Below are positions 37,358 through 45,736 of a stretch of DNA of 64,000 bases, one piece after another (the stretch's first letter is position 1; every line of letters begins with the position of its first letter). The position numbers were made by a program, and so were the translations under genes. Source of the DNA: Pseudomonadota bacterium (GTDB taxonomy: Bacteria > Pseudomonadota > Gammaproteobacteria > Burkholderiales > Eutrophovitaceae); the NCBI GenBank assembly GCA_027624715.1, contig JAQBTV010000001.1, forward strand, positions 1-64,000, read 5' to 3'. A model generated the notes under the pieces. That model made no database searches. It was not told the DNA's origin and worked only from the letters and a program-made list of their open reading frames with translations.

Positions 37358-38317
37358 ATGCACGACACCCTATCGCTTCTTAAATCTAGAAATTTTCCAG
37401 CTCTCAAGCGTAAACAGATTGAAACCGTACAGGTCAATCTGGGTTATCGATGTAACCAAGCATGCCTTCACTGCCATGTCAATGCTGGCCCCAATCGTAC
37501 AGAACAAATGACGCGCGATACCATTGGAGAGGTCATACAATTCATTGATGCAGTAAAACCCAATGTAGTTGACCTCACAGGCGGAGCTCCAGAACTCAAC
37601 ACCCACTTTAGAGAGCTTGTCTCCGAAATGCGGGGGCGTGAGATTTCAGTAATTGACCGATGCAACTTAACGATCCTGTCTGAACCTGGCCACGAGGACC
37701 TACCTGATTTTCTATCGGATCATAAGGTTATTATCGCGGCTTCACTGCCTTGCTATTCGGAAGAAAACGTCAATTCACAACGAGGGGACGGCGTATTCGA
37801 TAGAAGTATTCGAGGCTTACGCAGACTAAACAAAGTGGGTTATGGGGAAGGAAACCCCAAACTGCAATTGCATCTGGTTTATAACCCTTTGGGTGCAACC
37901 TTGCCACCGCCGCAAGAAACGCTAGAAGCGGAATATAAGGAACATTTAGCCAATAACTATGATGTGCACTTTGATGCACTAATGACCATAACGAACATGC
38001 CTATAAAACGCTTTGGCAGTACTTTAGTGAGTCGTGGTCAATTCGAAACTTACTTGCAACTACTGCAGGACAACTATAGAGAAGAGAATGTTAAGTCCGT
38101 CATGTGCAAAACATTAATTTCTATTGACTGGGAAGGTTACCTATTTGACTGTGATTTTAATCAGATGCTGGGCATCCCTCTTGGAGACGCAACAAAAAAG
38201 ATTCATATACGAAATTTAAATATAGACAATATCAAAGGGAAATCGATTGCAGTTAGAGATCACTGCTTTGGCTGCACCGCTGGACAGGGCTCTAGTTGCA
38301 GCGGAGCACTACAATAA
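37358..38317 (+). CDS. arsS: Arsenosugar biosynthesis radical SAM protein ArsS
   Basis: A 319-residue radical SAM enzyme. ArsS joins the 5'-deoxyadenosyl group to arsenic to make the precursor of arsenosugars. The SAM [4Fe-4S] motif is GYRCNQACLHCHVNAGP (Cys32, Cys36, Cys39). A DUF3641-type C-terminal domain ends in HCFGCTAGQGSSCSGA (Cys303, Cys306, Cys314), with further cysteines in VMCKTLISIDWEGYLFDCDFNQMLG. Both halves match ArsS; the closest alternatives are other SPASM-type radical SAM proteins. It is followed by a noncoding gap of 330 bp and then the rest of the arsenosugar-type genes. Confidence 0.93.
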   Translation: MHDTLSLLKSRNFPALKRKQIETVQVNLGYRCNQACLHCHVNAGPNRTEQMTRDTIGEVIQFIDAVKPNVVDLTGGAPELNTHFRELVSEMRGREISVIDRCNLTILSEPGHEDLPDFLSDHKVIIAASLPCYSEENVNSQRGDGVFDRSIRGLRRLNKVGYGEGNPKLQLHLVYNPLGATLPPPQETLEAEYKEHLANNYDVHFDALMTITNMPIKRFGSTLVSRGQFETYLQLLQDNYREENVKSVMCKTLISIDWEGYLFDCDFNQMLGIPLGDATKKIHIRNLNIDNIKGKSIAVRDHCFGCTAGQGSSCSGALQ

Positions 38318-38648
38318 AACGTATGTAATAGCAGCCGCAGCACAATCCTAGACAAGATAAAAAATAGAACAACTCAAAAACTTTTTAGGCTAGGAAAGGG
38401 AGATGTCTATGTCTATGTCTATGTCTATGTTGATGTTGATGTTGATCTAGTTCGAATAGAATATAGTCATTAAGATCAAACAGGCAAAGCTCTAAAGACA
38501 TGACGACCTCATTCACTGGCGTTTTAATCTTAACCCCAAACAATAATCAGAGGTTTCAACTAGACCACAGATTTGACTTCCATAAGTATTATTTCAACCA
38601 AATATTAAAGTTTGATTTAAAACAACGATAGACAGCAATCCTTAGAGT
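38318..38648. other. Noncoding gap between arsS and the membrane-reductase fusion
   Basis: A 331-bp stretch without a supported gene. Its main feature is the hexanucleotide tandem repeat at 38403-38444 (separate entry). The remainder is AT-rich and shows no RNA gene, terminator or long frame. Confidence 0.5.
38403..38444. repeat. Hexanucleotide tandem repeat (7 units)
   Basis: Four copies of ATGTCT are followed by three copies of ATGTTG, seven 6-bp units in all (42 bp), then ATCTAG. Read from 38403 it gives alternating Met-Ser then Met-Leu codons and a stop, with no sign of being a gene. It is the only sizeable microsatellite I see in the window and lies between arsS and the fusion gene, where it could vary in copy number by slippage. 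Confidence 0.8.
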
Positions 38649-40826
38649 ATGAAACTCACAAATTCTCATAAGAAGTGGATAGGCTTAATTATTACCACCT
38701 CGATCATCGCATTAGTCTTTATTTTTTTTCGTGAAAACGCTTTCAATCTACTTGCGCAATTAAACCTACAATCCCTCAAAGATAACTACTCTGAATTACA
38801 GATTTACTTTAAAGACCATCCGGTCCGACTAAGTCTGATATATGCCTTAATCTACATCATCGTGACGGCTTTTTCACTACCTGGCTCGGTGATTCTGACA
38901 ATCGGAGGAGGAGCAATATTTGGCCTAGTTTTAGGAACTATCCTTGTATCTTTTTGCTCATCTATTGGCGCAACAGCTGCCTTTCTGATCACGCGATATT
39001 TTTTTCGCAGCTCCGTTAGAGCACGTTTTGGCGACAAATTAAAAATCATCAATGAAGGTATAAAGAAAGACGGGCCTTTTTACCTACTAACGATGAGGTT
39101 AGTTCCGATTTTCCCGTTCTTTGCAATCAATGTGTTGATGGCTCTGACACCAATCAAGACGCAAACGTTCTATCTGGTCAGTCAAATCGGAATGCTCCTC
39201 GGAACCATAATATTCGTAAATGCCGGAACCCAACTCGCTACTCTAAATTCGATCGGCGACATTCTCTCAATAAATTTGATTATTTCTCTTTGTATTCTCG
39301 GGCTATTCCCCATTGCCGCAAAAGTTTTATCAGATCTAATGAACCGACATCGAGTCTATGCCAGATGGTCGAAACCAAAACATTTCGACTATAACCTAAT
39401 AGTAATTGGGGGTGGCGCCGCGGGACTTGTATCCTCCTACGTAGGTGCTGCCTTGAATGCACGAGTGGCTCTCATTGAAAAACACAAAATGGGAGGTGAT
39501 TGCCTCAATACGGGATGCGTGCCTTCGAAGGCGTTAATTAAAACTGCCCATTTCATTGAACAAGCAAAACAATCTAACCGTTTAGGCATCCAAAAAGCTG
39601 ACGTAATCTTCAATTTTTCAGACGTAATAAAACGAGTCCATAAGATTATCAAGAAAATAGAGCCTCATGACTCAATAAATCGTTACACAGAACTAGGCGT
39701 GACATGCTATCAAGGAAATGCGAAAATCATTACGCCGTGGACGATAGCAATTAATAGCGTAGGAGGTGAAAAAATAATCAGCGCTCGATCAATTATTGTA
39801 GCGGCCGGGGCCAGCCCGATCATTCCGCACCTACCCAATATCAACGAAATCAACCACATCACTTCTGACACCGTCTGGGATCTAGATGAGCTACCAAAAC
39901 GTCTGATCATCATTGGCGGCGGCGCGATCGGTTGTGAATTAACACAAGCCTTCCAACGATTGGGCTCTCAGGTCATTTTGGTAGAATCTGCTGATCGCAT
40001 TCTTTTGAAAGAGGATACCGATGTCGCCAAGATGCTCGAAAACCAGTTATCGGATGAAGGTGTCGCGGTATTAACACGCCATCGAGCTAAGGGATTCATT
40101 AAGGAAAATGGGGTGCAAACACTAGTTTGCGACAGTCCTAATGGTGAGGTTAGTCTATCTTTTGATCAAGTTCTTTTTGCTATTGGAAGGCAAGCTAATA
40201 TAAAAGGTTACGGACTAGAAGATATAGATGCTATTTGTACAGACGATATTGTTTTACCTACAAATGATTTTCTACAAACGAAGTTTCCAAATATCTACGC
40301 ATGCGGAGATGTGACTGGCAGAATGCAGTTCACTCATGCTGCTGCTCATCAAGCCTGGCATGCGGTAGTAAATGCCCTCTTTGGTCAATTTAGAAAATTT
40401 ACTATCGATTTTTCATCTGTACCGTGGGCTATATTCACTCATCCCGGAGTTGCAAGAGTGGGGTTAAATGAGAACGAAGCAAACAAACAAAACATAGCTT
40501 ACGAAGCTACGACATACGGACTAGATGATCTCGATCGCGCAATTGCGGACTCAGAAGACCATGGTTTTATCAAAGTACTAACGCGGCCAAAATCTGATCG
40601 AATAATCGGCGTTACTATTGTGAGTGAACATGCCTCTGAAATTATTGCTGAATTTGTTCTCGCTATGAAATATAAATTAGGACTTAATAAGATTCTCGCT
40701 ACTACGCATATCTACCCAACATTCTCAGAAGCCAACAAATATGTAGCAGGAGAGTGGAAAAGGAAACACGCTCCTCAAAAGATTCTAAAGGTCCTAGAGA
40801 TATATCACCAATTCCTGCGTCGATAA
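38649..40826 (+). CDS. TVP38/TMEM64 membrane domain fused to FAD-dependent disulfide reductase
   Basis: A 725-residue fusion. Residues 8-230 are a TVP38/TMEM64 (VTT, DedA-like) membrane domain with about six hydrophobic segments. GGGAIFGLVLGT and MRLVPIFPFFAINVLMALTPI are VTT signatures. Residues 248-725 form a pyridine-nucleotide-disulfide oxidoreductase: FAD motif IVIGGGAAGLVSSY, redox disulfide GGDCLNTGCVPSK (Cys285, Cys290), NAD motif IIGGGAIGCELTQAF, FAD motif YACGDVTG, and the C-terminal THIYPTFSEANKY with His and Glu. There is no N-terminal HMA domain or C-terminal cysteine pair, so it is not a mercuric reductase. As I recall, fusions of this kind often lie beside arsS; the reaction is unknown. 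Confidence 0.92.
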   Translation: MKLTNSHKKWIGLIITTSIIALVFIFFRENAFNLLAQLNLQSLKDNYSELQIYFKDHPVRLSLIYALIYIIVTAFSLPGSVILTIGGGAIFGLVLGTILVSFCSSIGATAAFLITRYFFRSSVRARFGDKLKIINEGIKKDGPFYLLTMRLVPIFPFFAINVLMALTPIKTQTFYLVSQIGMLLGTIIFVNAGTQLATLNSIGDILSINLIISLCILGLFPIAAKVLSDLMNRHRVYARWSKPKHFDYNLIVIGGGAAGLVSSYVGAALNARVALIEKHKMGGDCLNTGCVPSKALIKTAHFIEQAKQSNRLGIQKADVIFNFSDVIKRVHKIIKKIEPHDSINRYTELGVTCYQGNAKIITPWTIAINSVGGEKIISARSIIVAAGASPIIPHLPNINEINHITSDTVWDLDELPKRLIIIGGGAIGCELTQAFQRLGSQVILVESADRILLKEDTDVAKMLENQLSDEGVAVLTRHRAKGFIKENGVQTLVCDSPNGEVSLSFDQVLFAIGRQANIKGYGLEDIDAICTDDIVLPTNDFLQTKFPNIYACGDVTGRMQFTHAAAHQAWHAVVNALFGQFRKFTIDFSSVPWAIFTHPGVARVGLNENEANKQNIAYEATTYGLDDLDRAIADSEDHGFIKVLTRPKSDRIIGVTIVSEHASEIIAEFVLAMKYKLGLNKILATTHIYPTFSEANKYVAGEWKRKHAPQKILKVLEIYHQFLRR

Positions 40827-40998
40827 TCATTATCATCACCTAAAACTTTAAAACCGTAACATCTTTTCGATTAGTTTCAGCATTAATTATTTTAATTTCA
40901 ACATTTGATAAATGGTATATGACAAAACATCAGTTCGAATCCTTTGAAAAAGAGCAACAGCTTGTATCCCTAATCAATGCATAAATTGTCTATACCAT

Positions 40999-41736
40999 AT
41001 GCGATTGGTCATAAAAAAAAAGCATTTCGGAGTAGCGCATCGTCTCATGTCAGCAGAAGACATCACCATATCGGTAATCATCCCTGTCTTAAACGAAGAA
41101 CAACTTATTCCTTTATTACTTAATGAGCTGCATACTAAAAAGTCGGGCAAAACGGAAATAATCGTAGTAGATGGAGGTAGCACCGATAACACCTTGGAGA
41201 TCGTACGCCACACAGCGGATCAGATTATCCACTCACATCCAGGACGCGCAAAACAAATGAACGCAGGAGCACTAAGTGCGAACGGTAAATTTTTATGGTT
41301 CTTACATGCAGATTCTTCGATTTGTTTCGAATTCGAAGATATCATTGAATTAGCCCTGCACCACCACTCTTGGGGTTGGTTCAACGTGCACTTAAATCAT
41401 CAGAAGAAAATTTTTCGGATCATTGAGTCCATGATGAATCTGCGGTCAAGAATCACCAATATTGCTACTGGTGATCAGGGAATTTTTGTTCGTAAAGATA
41501 TTTCTTTAGCTATAGGCCTTTTTCCGTCGATAGCAATCATGGAGGATATTGTTTTTTCAAAAAAACTAAAACGTGTAGGACAACCCTTCGTGAGTAGCGC
41601 GCGAATAAAGACATCGGTCAGAAGATGGGAGGAAAATGGACCTCTGAGAACAATCTTTAAAATGTGGGCTCTGCGACTATTGTTTTTTTTCGGGACAAAC
41701 CCAAATTGGTTAAAAAAACAATACGATAAAAGATGA
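40999..41736 (+). CDS. Glycosyltransferase of the arsenosugar-associated TIGR04283 type
   Basis: A GT-A family 2 glycosyltransferase. The core begins ITISVIIPVLNEEQLIPLLLNEL, with the donor-binding acidic region IIVVDGGSTDNTLEIVRH and the DxD-like LWFLHADSSI. The segment GDQGIFVRK and the block FPSIAIMEDIVFSKKLKRVG, whose MEDxxFSxxL is characteristic, match the TIGR04283 proteins found in arsenosugar clusters. These are thought to attach sugar-like units to dimethylarsinoyl ribose. The frame is open from 40999; an ATG at 41047 (MSAEDITISV) gives a more typical N-terminus, but neither has a clear ribosome site. Its stop overlaps the next gene by 4 bp. Confidence 0.9.
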   Translation: MRLVIKKKHFGVAHRLMSAEDITISVIIPVLNEEQLIPLLLNELHTKKSGKTEIIVVDGGSTDNTLEIVRHTADQIIHSHPGRAKQMNAGALSANGKFLWFLHADSSICFEFEDIIELALHHHSWGWFNVHLNHQKKIFRIIESMMNLRSRITNIATGDQGIFVRKDISLAIGLFPSIAIMEDIVFSKKLKRVGQPFVSSARIKTSVRRWEENGPLRTIFKMWALRLLFFFGTNPNWLKKQYDKR

Positions 41737-42371
41737 CTAACTCTACCAATAAAGAACACAATACTTTAATTCAGATTTTCACGCGGACACCTGTTGCAGG
41801 TGCAGTTAAAAAAAGACTTATTCCCGAATTAGGCTCAGACAGATCGTGTGAATTACATCAACGTATGACACTTCATACCTTAAAGGTGGCTACAAACATG
41901 TCGTCAAATCTTGAGATATGGGTCACACCAGATATCAATCATATTTTCTTTACGACACTGATCTCTAATAATCATCTGAAGCCTCAAATTGGAGAGTCTC
42001 TAGTTGAGCGAATGGCTTTTAGCCTTAACAAGGGTTTAGAGAATCATAAAAAAGTACTCCTCATTGGATGTGACTGCCCTTCTATCAATAAAGCTATGCT
42101 AAAAAGAGCATTTCTTGAACTAGATCGGCACGAATACGTATTCATTCCTGTAGAAGACGGCGGATTTTCTTTGGTAGGGACGCATACGTTCTCCCCAGCA
42201 ATATTTCACAACGTCCCGTGGGGCACTAACCAAGTAATGCATCAGATTCGATCTAACTTAAAAACACACAGTCGTACCTGGCAAGAGTTGCCGATATTAT
42301 GGGACGTAGATGAAATTGCCGATTACCATCGACTCACTGAATACATGCCTCAATTAACACACGGACTATAA
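41733..42371 (+). CDS. Arsenosugar-associated TIGR04282-type glycosyltransferase (DUF2064)
   Basis: A 212-residue protein with a Rossmann-type nucleotide-sugar transferase fold. Signatures are LIQIFTRTPVAGAVKKRLIPELG (the F[TA]+P..G..K[TK]RL form), VLLIGCDCPSINKAMLKRAF (GCDCP in place of GTDCP), VFIPVEDGGFSLVGT and FHNVPWGTNQVMHQIRSNL. It matches TIGR04282/DUF2064 proteins, which are found with TIGR04283 in arsenosugar gene sets. Its ATG overlaps the previous stop (ATGA), so the two are translationally coupled and probably act in sequence or together. The precise sugar donor is unknown. Confidence 0.9.
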   Translation: MTNSTNKEHNTLIQIFTRTPVAGAVKKRLIPELGSDRSCELHQRMTLHTLKVATNMSSNLEIWVTPDINHIFFTTLISNNHLKPQIGESLVERMAFSLNKGLENHKKVLLIGCDCPSINKAMLKRAFLELDRHEYVFIPVEDGGFSLVGTHTFSPAIFHNVPWGTNQVMHQIRSNLKTHSRTWQELPILWDVDEIADYHRLTEYMPQLTHGL

Positions 42372-42431
42372 AGACTGATAATCATTCCATTAGTCACCGT
42401 GCATAATATAAGATTACTCGCTCAAATATAA

Positions 42432-43544
42432 ATGAAGAAACTTGTACTTATTGGTGGCGGCCATACGCATTTAGAAACTATTCGACGACTGGGCGAGCAA
42501 TCGTCTCTTGATGTTGCGCTAACATTAATTAGTGGCGATCGATACACACCGTACTCAGGCATGCTGCCTGGCCTAATATCGGGTCATTACACAGCTAGTG
42601 AGTGTCATATTGATCTTGAAGAGCTATGTAATAGATATAAATTTAATTTTATTCAAGAATCTGTAACTCGAGTCTCACACAACGAGCAACGAATACATAC
42701 TCAAACAGACCAGCATGAATATGACCTAGCATCTATCAATATCGGATCAACACCAAACCTCTACTCAACAATTGGCGCTAAACAGTGGGCTATTCCGGTA
42801 AAACCAATTGATCAGCTGCTCGATAAAATCAATTGTTTTCTAGACAAAGTTGCTAACGCACCCATGAAACAAAAATTTGAGGTCACTGTTGTGGGAGGTG
42901 GGGCGGCCGGTCTTGAAATCTTGCTAGCGCTAAAATATCGCACAGATACCTGTGGCTATACCAATCTAAATTTCTCGATGATCACTGGCTCTAATGATAT
43001 TCTAGACACACATCCCATGCCCATTCGGCGTAAATTTCACCGAATCCTCCATCAAAAAAATGTGACGACCTACTATGCTAATCCTGTAGTCAAGGTATCT
43101 AAAGAGCATGTCACAACCGCCTCGGGGAAAATAATTAAATCTGACCTGACGGTATGGGCTACTGGAGCTGCAGCGAGTACTTGGCCTAAATTATCCAATC
43201 TTCCTACGACAGAAGATGGATTTATTAAAACGGATCAATACCTCAAAGTTAAAAATATCAATAATCTCTTTGCAGTCGGAGATATTGGGTCTATTGAGAG
43301 GTTACAGCATCCGAAGTCCGGAGTTTATGCATTGAAGCAAGCCGCAGTACTGACTACTAACATCAACAATCTAGTGAACGATAGGCCGCTTGAGCGATAT
43401 ATACCCCAGAAACACGCCCTCGCTTTAATCAGTGCGGGAAGCAAATATGCCGTTGCCTCAAGAAATATTTTATGTACTAGCGGAAAATGGGTATGGCACT
43501 GGAAAGATTATATTGACCGAAATTTCATGGGCAAATTTCGGTAA
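42432..43544 (+). CDS. SelD-like FAD-dependent oxidoreductase (stand-alone)
   Basis: A 370-residue flavoprotein of the NDH-2-like family. It resembles the FAD domain that is fused N-terminally to selenide, water dikinase (SelD) in many bacteria. Signatures are KKLVLIGGGHTHLETIRRLG (FAD), YTPYSGMLPGLISGHY, FEVTVVGGGAAGLEILLAL (NAD(P)H), VWATGAAASTWP and NNLFAVGDIGSI. No kinase domain follows. It ends the arsenosugar-type gene set, 60 bp after the preceding glycosyltransferase. In this setting it may supply or remove electrons in arsenic chemistry, which is inference. Confidence 0.87.
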   Translation: MKKLVLIGGGHTHLETIRRLGEQSSLDVALTLISGDRYTPYSGMLPGLISGHYTASECHIDLEELCNRYKFNFIQESVTRVSHNEQRIHTQTDQHEYDLASINIGSTPNLYSTIGAKQWAIPVKPIDQLLDKINCFLDKVANAPMKQKFEVTVVGGGAAGLEILLALKYRTDTCGYTNLNFSMITGSNDILDTHPMPIRRKFHRILHQKNVTTYYANPVVKVSKEHVTTASGKIIKSDLTVWATGAAASTWPKLSNLPTTEDGFIKTDQYLKVKNINNLFAVGDIGSIERLQHPKSGVYALKQAAVLTTNINNLVNDRPLERYIPQKHALALISAGSKYAVASRNILCTSGKWVWHWKDYIDRNFMGKFR

Positions 43545-45424: not shown

Positions 45425-45736
45425 TTATTCTTTAGTACAGGGGAACCCTATTCTGAGCGCTTGCACTATTAAATAACGTCGAGGCCGAAAAAGATTTTCA
45501 GGATGATTCTCTAGGTAGTACAAAACGGCTGCGAATGTCGTCTCCCTTATGTTTTCTTCAGGAATACAAAATAGTCCATTATTCCACTTAATCCAAACAT
45601 CATCGATGAATGGCTGAGTTGCCTCGCGACCATTAGGGTGCTGCATCATCTCAAGCAACTCGTTACCATCAGTTTCCGCTCTCAATAAAGCCGGTAGTAG
45701 CAACACTAAACATAATGCTAGGTTTACACGTTTCAT
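45425..45736 (-). CDS. Rap1a/Tai-like small exported protein
   Basis: A 103-residue protein with a signal peptide (residues 1-20, ending LLRA). The rest resembles the Rap1a/Tai immunity domain: NGNELL-like DGNELLEMMQH, FCIPEENIRETTFAAVLYYLENHPENLFRPRRYLIVQALRIGFPC, with the VCIPxxV...YLxxHPExxxxxxxxLVxxALxxAFPC pattern. Rap1a/Tai proteins neutralise amidase effectors of type VI secretion, but many family members occur without an effector gene, as here. Cysteines at about 56 and 100 would form the usual disulfide. Confidence 0.78.
   Translation of the reverse strand: MKRVNLALCLVLLLPALLRAETDGNELLEMMQHPNGREATQPFIDDVWIKWNNGLFCIPEENIRETTFAAVLYYLENHPENLFRPRRYLIVQALRIGFPCTKE

What the first reader, a model, noticed from the sequence alone, without database searches (positions are those of the whole stretch)
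37358..43544. Compact arsenosugar biosynthesis locus without a visible arsM or arsR
arsS, a TVP38/TMEM64-reductase fusion, a TIGR04283-like and a TIGR04282-like glycosyltransferase and a SelD-like FAD oxidoreductase lie in a row on the plus strand. The first steps (methylation by ArsM, arsenate reduction, ArsR control) are not encoded in the 64 kb. The locus therefore either relies on genes elsewhere or uses another arsenic substrate. Only arsS has an established arsenosugar role; the others are linked by neighbourhood.
Basis: partly seen in the sequence, partly recalled or inferred. Interest (0 to 1): 0.75.

Follow-up and report, generated by a model that had tools for sequence, protein, structure and literature searches.

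The report
Arsenic-sugar locus lacking arsenic methylase
A small bacterium carries an intact gene set for attaching arsenic to a sugar but not the enzyme that normally makes the methylated arsenic it needs, and its relatives point to an untested enzyme route for the later steps.

Summary
The five genes are real: ArsS (TIGR04167), TIGR04283, TIGR04282 and TIGR03169 pass curated cut-offs, beside a VTT (TVP38)/disulfide-reductase fusion. ArsM was not found in the 97%-complete genome or in five more genomes of its genus. Acr3, an ArsR and a probable ArsC are present as an operon on another contig. Lack of ArsM is common: 39 of 61 arsS genomes examined in this order. It marks no separate ArsS subfamily: both kinds mix on the tree, and eight cysteines are kept in 101 of 101. 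The genes are under purifying selection. Best reading: arsenosugar-type synthesis from dimethylarsenic made by other organisms. Main new result: in relatives a distinct clade of methylthioadenosine phosphorylases lies beside arsS in 17 of 144 loci, 16 of them with TIGR04283 and TIGR04282. With TIGR04282's nucleotidyltransferase fold this suggests ArsS, phosphorolysis, nucleotide activation, glycosyl transfer. The window's own genome has only a housekeeping phosphorylase. Substrate and product are untested.

The parts
37358..38317 (+). arsS: radical SAM enzyme (TIGR04167/DUF3641), proposed to adenosylate dimethylarsenite
   Evidence: 449.2 bits vs cut-off 300; C32/C36/C39 (CX3CX2C) and C250, C265, C303, C306, C314 present in 101 of 101 homologues aligned
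38649..40826 (+). Fusion: N-terminal VTT (TVP38/TMEM64) membrane domain + FAD disulfide reductase; possible arsenic or thiol reductase (inferred)
   Evidence: Pfam VTT 76.9 bits, Pyr_redox_2 195 bits; below cut-off for lipoamide dehydrogenase (394.4 vs 408.8) and MerA (361.8 vs 454.45); reductase part aligns with dihydrolipoamide dehydrogenases and a mercuric reductase of the PDB
40919..40999 (+). Probable remnant of a DUF547 gene that relatives keep whole at this spot
   Evidence: tblastn of three relatives' DUF547 proteins: the best hit of each is here, 27 codons, 44-63% identity, E 1e-4, 0.014 and 0.037; PF04784 not found in G000 but in 4 of the 5 other genus genomes
41047..41736 (+). TIGR04283 family-2 glycosyltransferase (longest ORF starts 40999)
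   Evidence: 249.4 bits vs 182; start from homologues
41733..42371 (+). TIGR04282/DUF2064 protein; CofC/FbiD-like nucleotidyltransferase fold
   Evidence: 179.1 bits vs 134; AlphaFold2 mean pLDDT 95; VIA-align Z 26.3 to 3cgx, 19.7 to 2i5e, 19.3 to 3-phosphoglycerate guanylyltransferase 7p97, 17.2 to Rv2983 6bwh
42432..43544 (+). TIGR03169 NDH-2/FSP1-like FAD oxidoreductase (stand-alone, no SelD domain)
   Evidence: 369.9 bits vs 310; matches type II NADH dehydrogenases and FSP1 in the PDB

Best explanation
This is a functional arsenosugar-type locus in a genome that does not methylate arsenic itself. ArsS would join a 5'-deoxyadenosyl radical to dimethylarsenite taken from outside (dimethylarsenic released by phytoplankton and other methylating microbes), giving 5'-deoxy-5'-dimethylarsino-adenosine, an arsenic analogue of methylthioadenosine. 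A methylthioadenosine phosphorylase would then remove adenine, leaving a dimethylarsenic ribose-1-phosphate; the TIGR04282 protein would activate that sugar phosphate with a nucleotide; the TIGR04283 glycosyltransferase would pass the arsenic sugar to glycerol or a glycerolipid. The fusion reductase and the TIGR03169 oxidoreductase would supply reducing power or reduce DMA(V) to DMA(III). Shown here: gene identities, the fold of TIGR04282, no ArsM found genome-wide, selection, and in relatives the linkage of a distinct phosphorylase clade. Established elsewhere: the ArsS step (SsArsS with SsArsM in Synechocystis; adenosylation of arsenic by a radical SAM enzyme; passages of two papers). Inferred: DMA scavenging, phosphorolysis, activation, transfer, the roles of both oxidoreductases, and that the housekeeping phosphorylase serves in this genome.
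For: Families. ArsM not found with two profiles in the 6 genus genomes and in 39 of 61 arsS genomes of the order. ArsS of arsM-minus and arsM-plus genomes interleaved: 19 changes on the tree, at least 8 forced by starred branches; no column separates them. Purifying selection, dN/dS 0.08-0.20 for the five genes and 0.05-0.08 for three neighbours (window vs L054). The cell deals with arsenic: ArsR, probable ArsC, Acr3 in a row. TIGR04282 fold. In relatives a methylthioadenosine-phosphorylase gene lies beside arsS in 17 of 144 loci (about 0.9 expected by a rough estimate with assumed genome size and copy number), 6 of them same strand 25-172 bp upstream; 16 of those 17 hold TIGR04283 and TIGR04282 against 65 of 127 others (P 5e-4); 19 of 20 linked rows (18 of 19 without a duplicate) form one clade (98/97 support). 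17 of 18 keep TDxDCW and one has TDWDSW, as the housekeeping enzymes also do, while 9 of 9 short thioinosine-type enzymes do not. The own genome has one such phosphorylase (PF01048), above an NCBIfam cut-off (498.2 vs 437). Papers: SsArsS works with SsArsM (PMC8552651, passage); radical SAM adenosylation of arsenic (PMC12159101, passage); [quoted passage not shown] Genus relatives are the MAGs TMED22 and UBA3031 (that these come from marine surveys is recalled).
Against: No uptake gene for DMA was identified or sought. The window's ArsS sits with its genus on a long stem branch (1.11 changes per site), so changed specificity is possible, though changes at conserved sites are mostly mild. The arsM label is clustered on the ArsS tree (0 of 500 shuffles as low). 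In the window's genome the phosphorylase is unlinked and of the housekeeping clade. 127 of 144 arsS loci have no linked phosphorylase, and several of the 17 are from one genus. Many arsS loci, including bare arsS-arsM pairs, lack TIGR04282/TIGR04283, so these are not needed by every ArsS pathway. In a wider sample most arsS genomes do have an ArsM match (49 of 68 at E 1e-28, 37 of 68 at 150 bits or more). TIGR04282 scores far below the CofC family cut-off (32.9 vs 105), and a shared fold shows no function.
Confidence: 0.5

Rival explanations
1. ArsS in arsM-minus genomes uses a different substrate: arsenite, monomethylarsenite or a non-arsenic nucleophile such as a selenium or phosphorus compound. 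The locus would then make a different adenosine-derived product.
For: ArsM not found in 39 of 61 arsS genomes of the order, and not significantly commoner there than in 19 arsS-negative ones (22 of 61 vs 3 of 19, P 0.16); only 27 of 61 have Acr3 over cut-off; long stem branch of this genus; the model names rSAM_SeCys and Nterm_to_SelD come from selenium neighbourhoods.
Against: arsM status flips many times on the ArsS tree and no column tracks it; eight cysteines are invariant in both groups; the same partner genes occur in arsM-plus loci.
Confidence: 0.2
2. A methyltransferase not recognised as ArsM, or one in the missing part of the assembly, supplies dimethylarsenic inside the cell.
For: The assembly is 97.2% complete, not closed; the genome has six weak matches to the ArsM profile.
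Against: Six assemblies of the genus give no ArsM by either profile; the same profile finds distant ArsM types at 100-200 bits in other genomes, while the best own match reaches 59.7 bits and fits other methylase families as well or better.
Confidence: 0.12
3. The arsS-linked phosphorylase only salvages 5'-deoxyadenosine made by uncoupled radical SAM turnover, and the arsenic nucleoside is processed by other enzymes.
For: Methylthioadenosine phosphorylases can act on 5'-deoxyadenosine (recalled); linkage exists in only 17 of 144 loci.
Against: Linkage goes with TIGR04283 and TIGR04282 (16 of 17 vs 65 of 127), as a pathway step would; a distinct clade suggests a distinct substrate.
Confidence: 0.25
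4. The locus is decaying in this genome.
For: DUF547 gene reduced to a probable remnant; repeat-filled arsS-fusion gap.
Against: dN/dS 0.08-0.20 and full-length frames in all five remaining genes; the same-family genome G018, which has an ArsM match, has no DUF547 match either.
Confidence: 0.05

Closest known systems
Synechocystis ArsM-ArsS arsenosugar pathway (SsArsM/SsArsS)
   Same: ArsS of the same curated family by name and function; complete motif. The Synechocystis sequence itself was not compared here.
   Different: No ArsM found in this genome; extra genes TIGR04282, TIGR04283, VTT-reductase fusion, TIGR03169
TIGR04282/TIGR04283 'arsenosugar biosynthesis glycosyltransferases' (NCBIfam)
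   Same: Both over their cut-offs, adjacent and overlapping by 4 bases
   Different: TIGR04282 fold matches guanylyl- and cytidylyltransferases; proposed nucleotidyltransferase. One paper already calls a TIGR04282 gene fbiD (PMC8801600, passage)
Methylthioadenosine phosphorylase (TIGR01694; PRK07432/PRK08931 types)
   Same: Six arsS-linked enzymes of relatives and the window genome's own enzyme score above TIGR01694
   Different: The arsS-linked ones form their own clade and the six scanned lie below the PRK07432 cut-off (388-434 vs 453); the window's own enzyme is of a separate housekeeping clade
CofC/FbiD phospholactate guanylyltransferase
   Same: Fold of TIGR04282
   Different: Far below the CofC cut-off (32.9 vs 105); F420 context not examined

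Membership tests
ArsS (TIGR04167 equivalog) | Score above curated cut-off | tested here: met
   449.2 vs 300 bits
ArsS (TIGR04167 equivalog) | CX3CX2C radical SAM motif and conserved C-terminal cysteines | tested here: met
   C32, C36, C39, C250, C265, C303, C306, C314 in 101 of 101
ArsS (TIGR04167 equivalog) | Adenosylation of dimethylarsenite | not testable with these tools
   Enzyme assay needed
Complete ArsM-ArsS arsenosugar pathway | ArsM in the genome | tested here: not met
   Best 59.7 bits vs 263 with NF008823; no NF038099 match at E 1e-12; assembly 97.2% complete
TIGR04283 | Score above curated cut-off | tested here: met
   249.4 vs 182
TIGR04282 | Score above curated cut-off | tested here: met
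   179.1 vs 134
TIGR04282 | Glycosyltransferase activity implied by the name | tested here: inconclusive
   Fold is that of CofC/FbiD/IspD-type nucleotidyltransferases; activity untested
CofC (TIGR03552) | Score above curated cut-off | tested here: not met
   32.9 vs 105
Mercuric reductase MerA (TIGR02053) | Score above curated cut-off | tested here: not met
   361.8 vs 454.45
TIGR03169 SelD-associated oxidoreductase | Score above curated cut-off | tested here: met
   369.9 vs 310
SelD fusion | SelD domain in the same protein | tested here: not met
   370 aa, residues 4-369 covered by TIGR03169
ArsC, thioredoxin-type (TIGR02691), G000 contig 13 | Score above curated cut-off | tested here: not met
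   59.9 vs 174.3; called probable ArsC from its place between ArsR and Acr3 and a CX5R motif read from the sequence
ArsR/SmtB regulator (NF033788), G000 contig 13 | Score above curated cut-off | tested here: not met
   52.8 vs 55; called ArsR with operon context
Acr3 (TIGR00832), G000 contig 13 | Score above curated cut-off | tested here: met
   430.1 vs 282.8

The most novel reading that the evidence does not exclude
Bacterial arsenosugars are made by a methylthioadenosine-salvage-like route: ArsS product, then phosphorolysis by a dedicated arsS-linked phosphorylase (or the housekeeping one), nucleotide activation of the arsenic sugar phosphate by TIGR04282, and transfer by TIGR04283. Many bacteria, this genus included, run it without ArsM, on dimethylarsenic made by neighbours, so arsenosugar synthesis is a shared, community-level process.
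Probability: 0.4. Interest if true: 0.75.

Novelty: new variant of a known kind. Interest (0 to 1): 0.5.

Why it matters
The steps after the ArsS product are, as far as I know (recalled; no held paper found on them), not assigned to enzymes. A named candidate for each step, in cultured strains, makes that question directly testable. If arsM-free arsS bacteria scavenge dimethylarsenic, arsM surveys miss part of the organoarsenic cycle, and arsenosugars need not come from methylating organisms alone.

Tried and rejected
Hidden ArsM: two curated profiles over the genome; of the six weak matches the best three were looked at and are other methylases; the other three (20 bits or less) were not. Separate arsM-free ArsS subfamily: not seen on the tree or in any column. 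DUF547 gene moved elsewhere: not found in G000 (whose controls were silent), while the same search finds it in 4 of 5 other genus genomes. Presence of TIGR01694 as a marker: uninformative, 75 of 80 genomes match; only linkage was informative. Promoter and terminator scans: at the level of shuffles. Papers: searches (0 papers; 0; 'arsenosugar'+'methylthioadenosine', 0; family accessions, 5; 144 with two terms, 20 listed); I saw the listings with starts of abstracts, and matched passages of eleven papers. None of these gave the later arsenosugar steps. Xue 2019 (PMC6467767) is not held; Cheng 2021 on ArsS was seen only as a citation and reference.

Weak points of my counts: the 61 arsS genomes are a chosen subset of 93 (all 8 of the genus and family, then 53 others of at least 95% completeness, at most three per genus); the 19 arsS-negative genomes are the 20 listed ones without G006 (68% complete), out of 207. 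ArsM was called at 150 bits or more in the order but at E 1e-28 in the phylum sample; in the tree the 40 added rows (of 68) carry the second kind of call, seven of them with matches under 150 bits. Locus counts are lowered by contig ends; five duplicate loci and those with short flanks were dropped (144 of 181 kept). The chance estimate of linkage assumes 3.7 Mb genomes, 1.3 gene copies and independent loci; several linked loci share a genus. dN/dS against the next relative, L051, is saturated for most genes.
Full report
WHAT IS THERE. The window is the first 64 kb of contig 1 of a 1.77 Mb, 97.2% complete genome. The five genes 37358-43544 are intact and on the plus strand. ArsS, TIGR04283, TIGR04282 and TIGR03169 pass their curated NCBIfam cut-offs. 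The 725-aa protein is a VTT (TVP38/TMEM64) domain fused to a pyridine-nucleotide disulfide reductase that stays below the cut-offs of both lipoamide dehydrogenase and mercuric reductase. Between the fusion and the glycosyltransferase lies a probable 81-base remnant of a DUF547 gene (40919-40999): the DUF547 proteins of three relatives, which keep the gene whole at that place, all have their best hit there (E 1e-4, 0.014, 0.037). No other DUF547 match was found in the genome, while the same search finds one in 4 of the 5 other genus genomes. The glycosyltransferase therefore probably starts at 41047.

SURROUNDINGS AND ORIGIN. They share the flanking genes. That these names come from marine surveys is recalled.

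IS THE ARSENIC PATHWAY COMPLETE IN THE GENOME? ArsM: best match 59.7 bits against a cut-off of 263. That protein fits DVU_1556-type and sarcosine methylases slightly better, all below cut-off; the next two are UbiE (390 vs 378) and PrmA (229.6 vs 183.15). The arsenosugar-specific ArsM profile NF038099 gives nothing at E 1e-12 in any of the six genus genomes. But an ArsR-ArsC-Acr3 row lies at contig 13, 1580-3431: Acr3 430.1 bits vs 282.8; ArsR 52.8 vs 55 and ArsC 59.9 vs 174.3 fall below their cut-offs and are named with the help of context. Acr3 was found in only 2 of the 6 genus genomes. None of the three has a close relative in the window.

HOW UNUSUAL IS AN arsM-FREE arsS GENOME? In the order, 93 of 300 genomes have arsS. 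Of 61 of these examined, 22 have an ArsM match of at least 150 bits and 39 do not; of 19 arsS-negative genomes 3 do (difference not significant, P 0.16); NF038099 picks the same 22 and 3. In a phylum-wide sample of genomes at least 95% complete, 71 of 396 have arsS; of the 68 not examined before, 49 have an ArsM match at E 1e-28 (37 at 150 bits or more; 11 only over profile positions 142-236) and 19 have none. arsM-free arsS genomes are thus the larger part of those examined in this order and a minority in the wider sample. At the level of the locus, 37 of 61 named loci with at least 5 kb downstream hold arsS, TIGR04283 and TIGR04282 with no arsM in the held stretch.

IS IT THE SAME ENZYME? 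On a quick maximum-likelihood tree of 101 ArsS proteins (54 arsM-minus, 47 arsM-plus) the label changes at least 19 times (34 in shuffles, none of 500 as low), at least 8 of them forced by starred branches. It is clustered but far from a single split. No alignment column separates the groups (largest difference in composition 0.53, at a variable site), and eight cysteines including CX3CX2C are invariant in 101 of 101. The window's genus sits on a long stem; its substitutions at otherwise conserved sites are mostly mild (L24V, L71V, D139N, R251K, Y263F, G315S among 14 sites). dN/dS against L054, the nearest relative whose locus was held beyond arsS, is 0.08 (arsS), 0.12 (fusion, first piece only), 0.11 (TIGR04283), 0.20 (TIGR04282) and 0.11 (TIGR03169); three neighbours give 0.05-0.08. 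The locus is maintained without ArsM. Two selenoprotein reviews list a TIGR04167 protein as a predicted selenoprotein (PMC13188914, with motif GxxU, and PMC9312934; passages); G311-S-S-C314 of the window protein may be the cysteine form (inference).

WHAT TIGR04282 IS. Its NCBIfam short name is glyco_like_cofC, and one paper calls a TIGR04282 gene fbiD (PMC8801600, passage), so the likeness to CofC/FbiD is not new. An AlphaFold2 model (44 sequences, mean pLDDT 95) matches 3cgx, a putative nucleotide-diphospho-sugar transferase (Z 26.3, 1.8 A over 204 residues), 2i5e, a probable nucleotidyltransferase (Z 19.7), 3-phosphoglycerate guanylyltransferase 7p97 (Z 19.3) and Rv2983/FbiD 6bwh (Z 17.2), ahead of the IspD/TarI-type rows (14.6 and below); sequence profiles agree. 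Invariant residues in 44 sequences include K26, R28, D114, D142-G143-G144, D191 and D193. A sugar-phosphate nucleotidyltransferase role is the simplest reading; the fold does not support the name 'glycosyltransferase'.

THE MISSING ADENINE STEP. The ArsS product resembles methylthioadenosine with arsenic in place of sulfur (chemistry recalled). A search for TIGR01694 was meant as a test; presence is uninformative (75 of 80 genomes), but several matches lay beside arsS. With a profile of five of these, phosphorylases turned up in 5 of 61, 10 of 80 and 3 of 40 loci of the three sets; housekeeping and thioinosine-type enzymes score 163-326 with that profile, so they would not have been missed. 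Across 144 unique arsS loci with at least 5 kb downstream and 1 kb upstream, 17 hold one; a rough estimate from gene density is 0.9. Six lie on the same strand 25-172 bp upstream of arsS, among them Polaromonas and Microbulbifer loci. Of the 17, 16 also hold TIGR04283 and TIGR04282, against 65 of the other 127 (Fisher P 5e-4). On a 39-row tree 19 of 20 linked phosphorylases (two of them one sequence) form one supported clade (98/97), apart from the housekeeping enzymes and from the short thioinosine-type enzymes; the exception is G298, a long branch. Of 18 linked sequences 17 keep TDxDCW and L215 has TDWDSW; the housekeeping enzymes keep it too, the nine thioinosine-type sequences do not. NCBIfam calls six of the linked ones methylthioadenosine phosphorylases by TIGR01694, but all six fall below the closest subfamily's cut-off (388-434 vs 453). 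Against this: 127 loci have no linked copy, and the window's own genome has one gene matching Pfam PF01048, of the housekeeping type and unlinked. In this genome the step, if it occurs, must be done by that enzyme or another.

MECHANISM AND CONFIDENCE. Identity as an ArsS-type locus: near certain. Use of imported dimethylarsenic: about 0.55, since no ArsM was found and the enzyme looks unchanged; the 2017 paper title on ArsM 'providing DMA' supports DMA as the branch point (reference list only). The phosphorylase-nucleotidyltransferase-glycosyltransferase route: about 0.45. Roles of the VTT-reductase fusion and of TIGR03169 (type II NADH dehydrogenase/FSP1-like): guesses.

NOVELTY. ArsS and its annotation are known; the arsM-free genome is a variant. 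An arsS-linked phosphorylase clade was not met in the held papers by the searches (listings and passages only); most papers of subscription journals are not held.

Noticed in passing
L071, L078, L083, L097, L104, L129, L151, L152, L156/L231, L169, L182, L184, L185, L187, L192, L210, L215 (positions): Methylthioadenosine phosphorylases near arsS form their own clade, distinct from housekeeping and thioinosine-type enzymes.
   Followed up: yes
window 38403-38446: Hexamer repeats (ATGTCT, ATGTTG) in the 331-base arsS-fusion gap, which is only about 160 bases in L051 and L053.
   Followed up: no
L054 10295-12563: The fusion gene is split into two frames in this relative; frameshift or assembly error not told apart.
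   Followed up: no
G271:C34:11571, G083:C34:83633, G010:C20:26124: ArsM matches with one in-frame TGA each, possibly selenoprotein ArsM forms.
   Followed up: no
L127, L130, L133, L145, L147, L158, L168, L180, L207-L209: A second ArsM type directly downstream of arsS whose match to the ArsM profile is split in two, suggesting an insertion.
   Followed up: partly
L196-L205: An arsS-arsM pair with no TIGR04282/TIGR04283 in the held stretch; the later steps of these genomes are unknown.
   Followed up: partly
window 45425-45736: Small ORF on the minus strand with a borderline Rap1a immunity-protein match (29 vs 27.7 bits).
   Followed up: no
L130, L170, L176: MAG records titled Halobacteria archaeon, Bordetella parapertussis and Klebsiella pneumoniae carry ArsS 57-59% identical to the window's; the titles look doubtful.
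   Followed up: no
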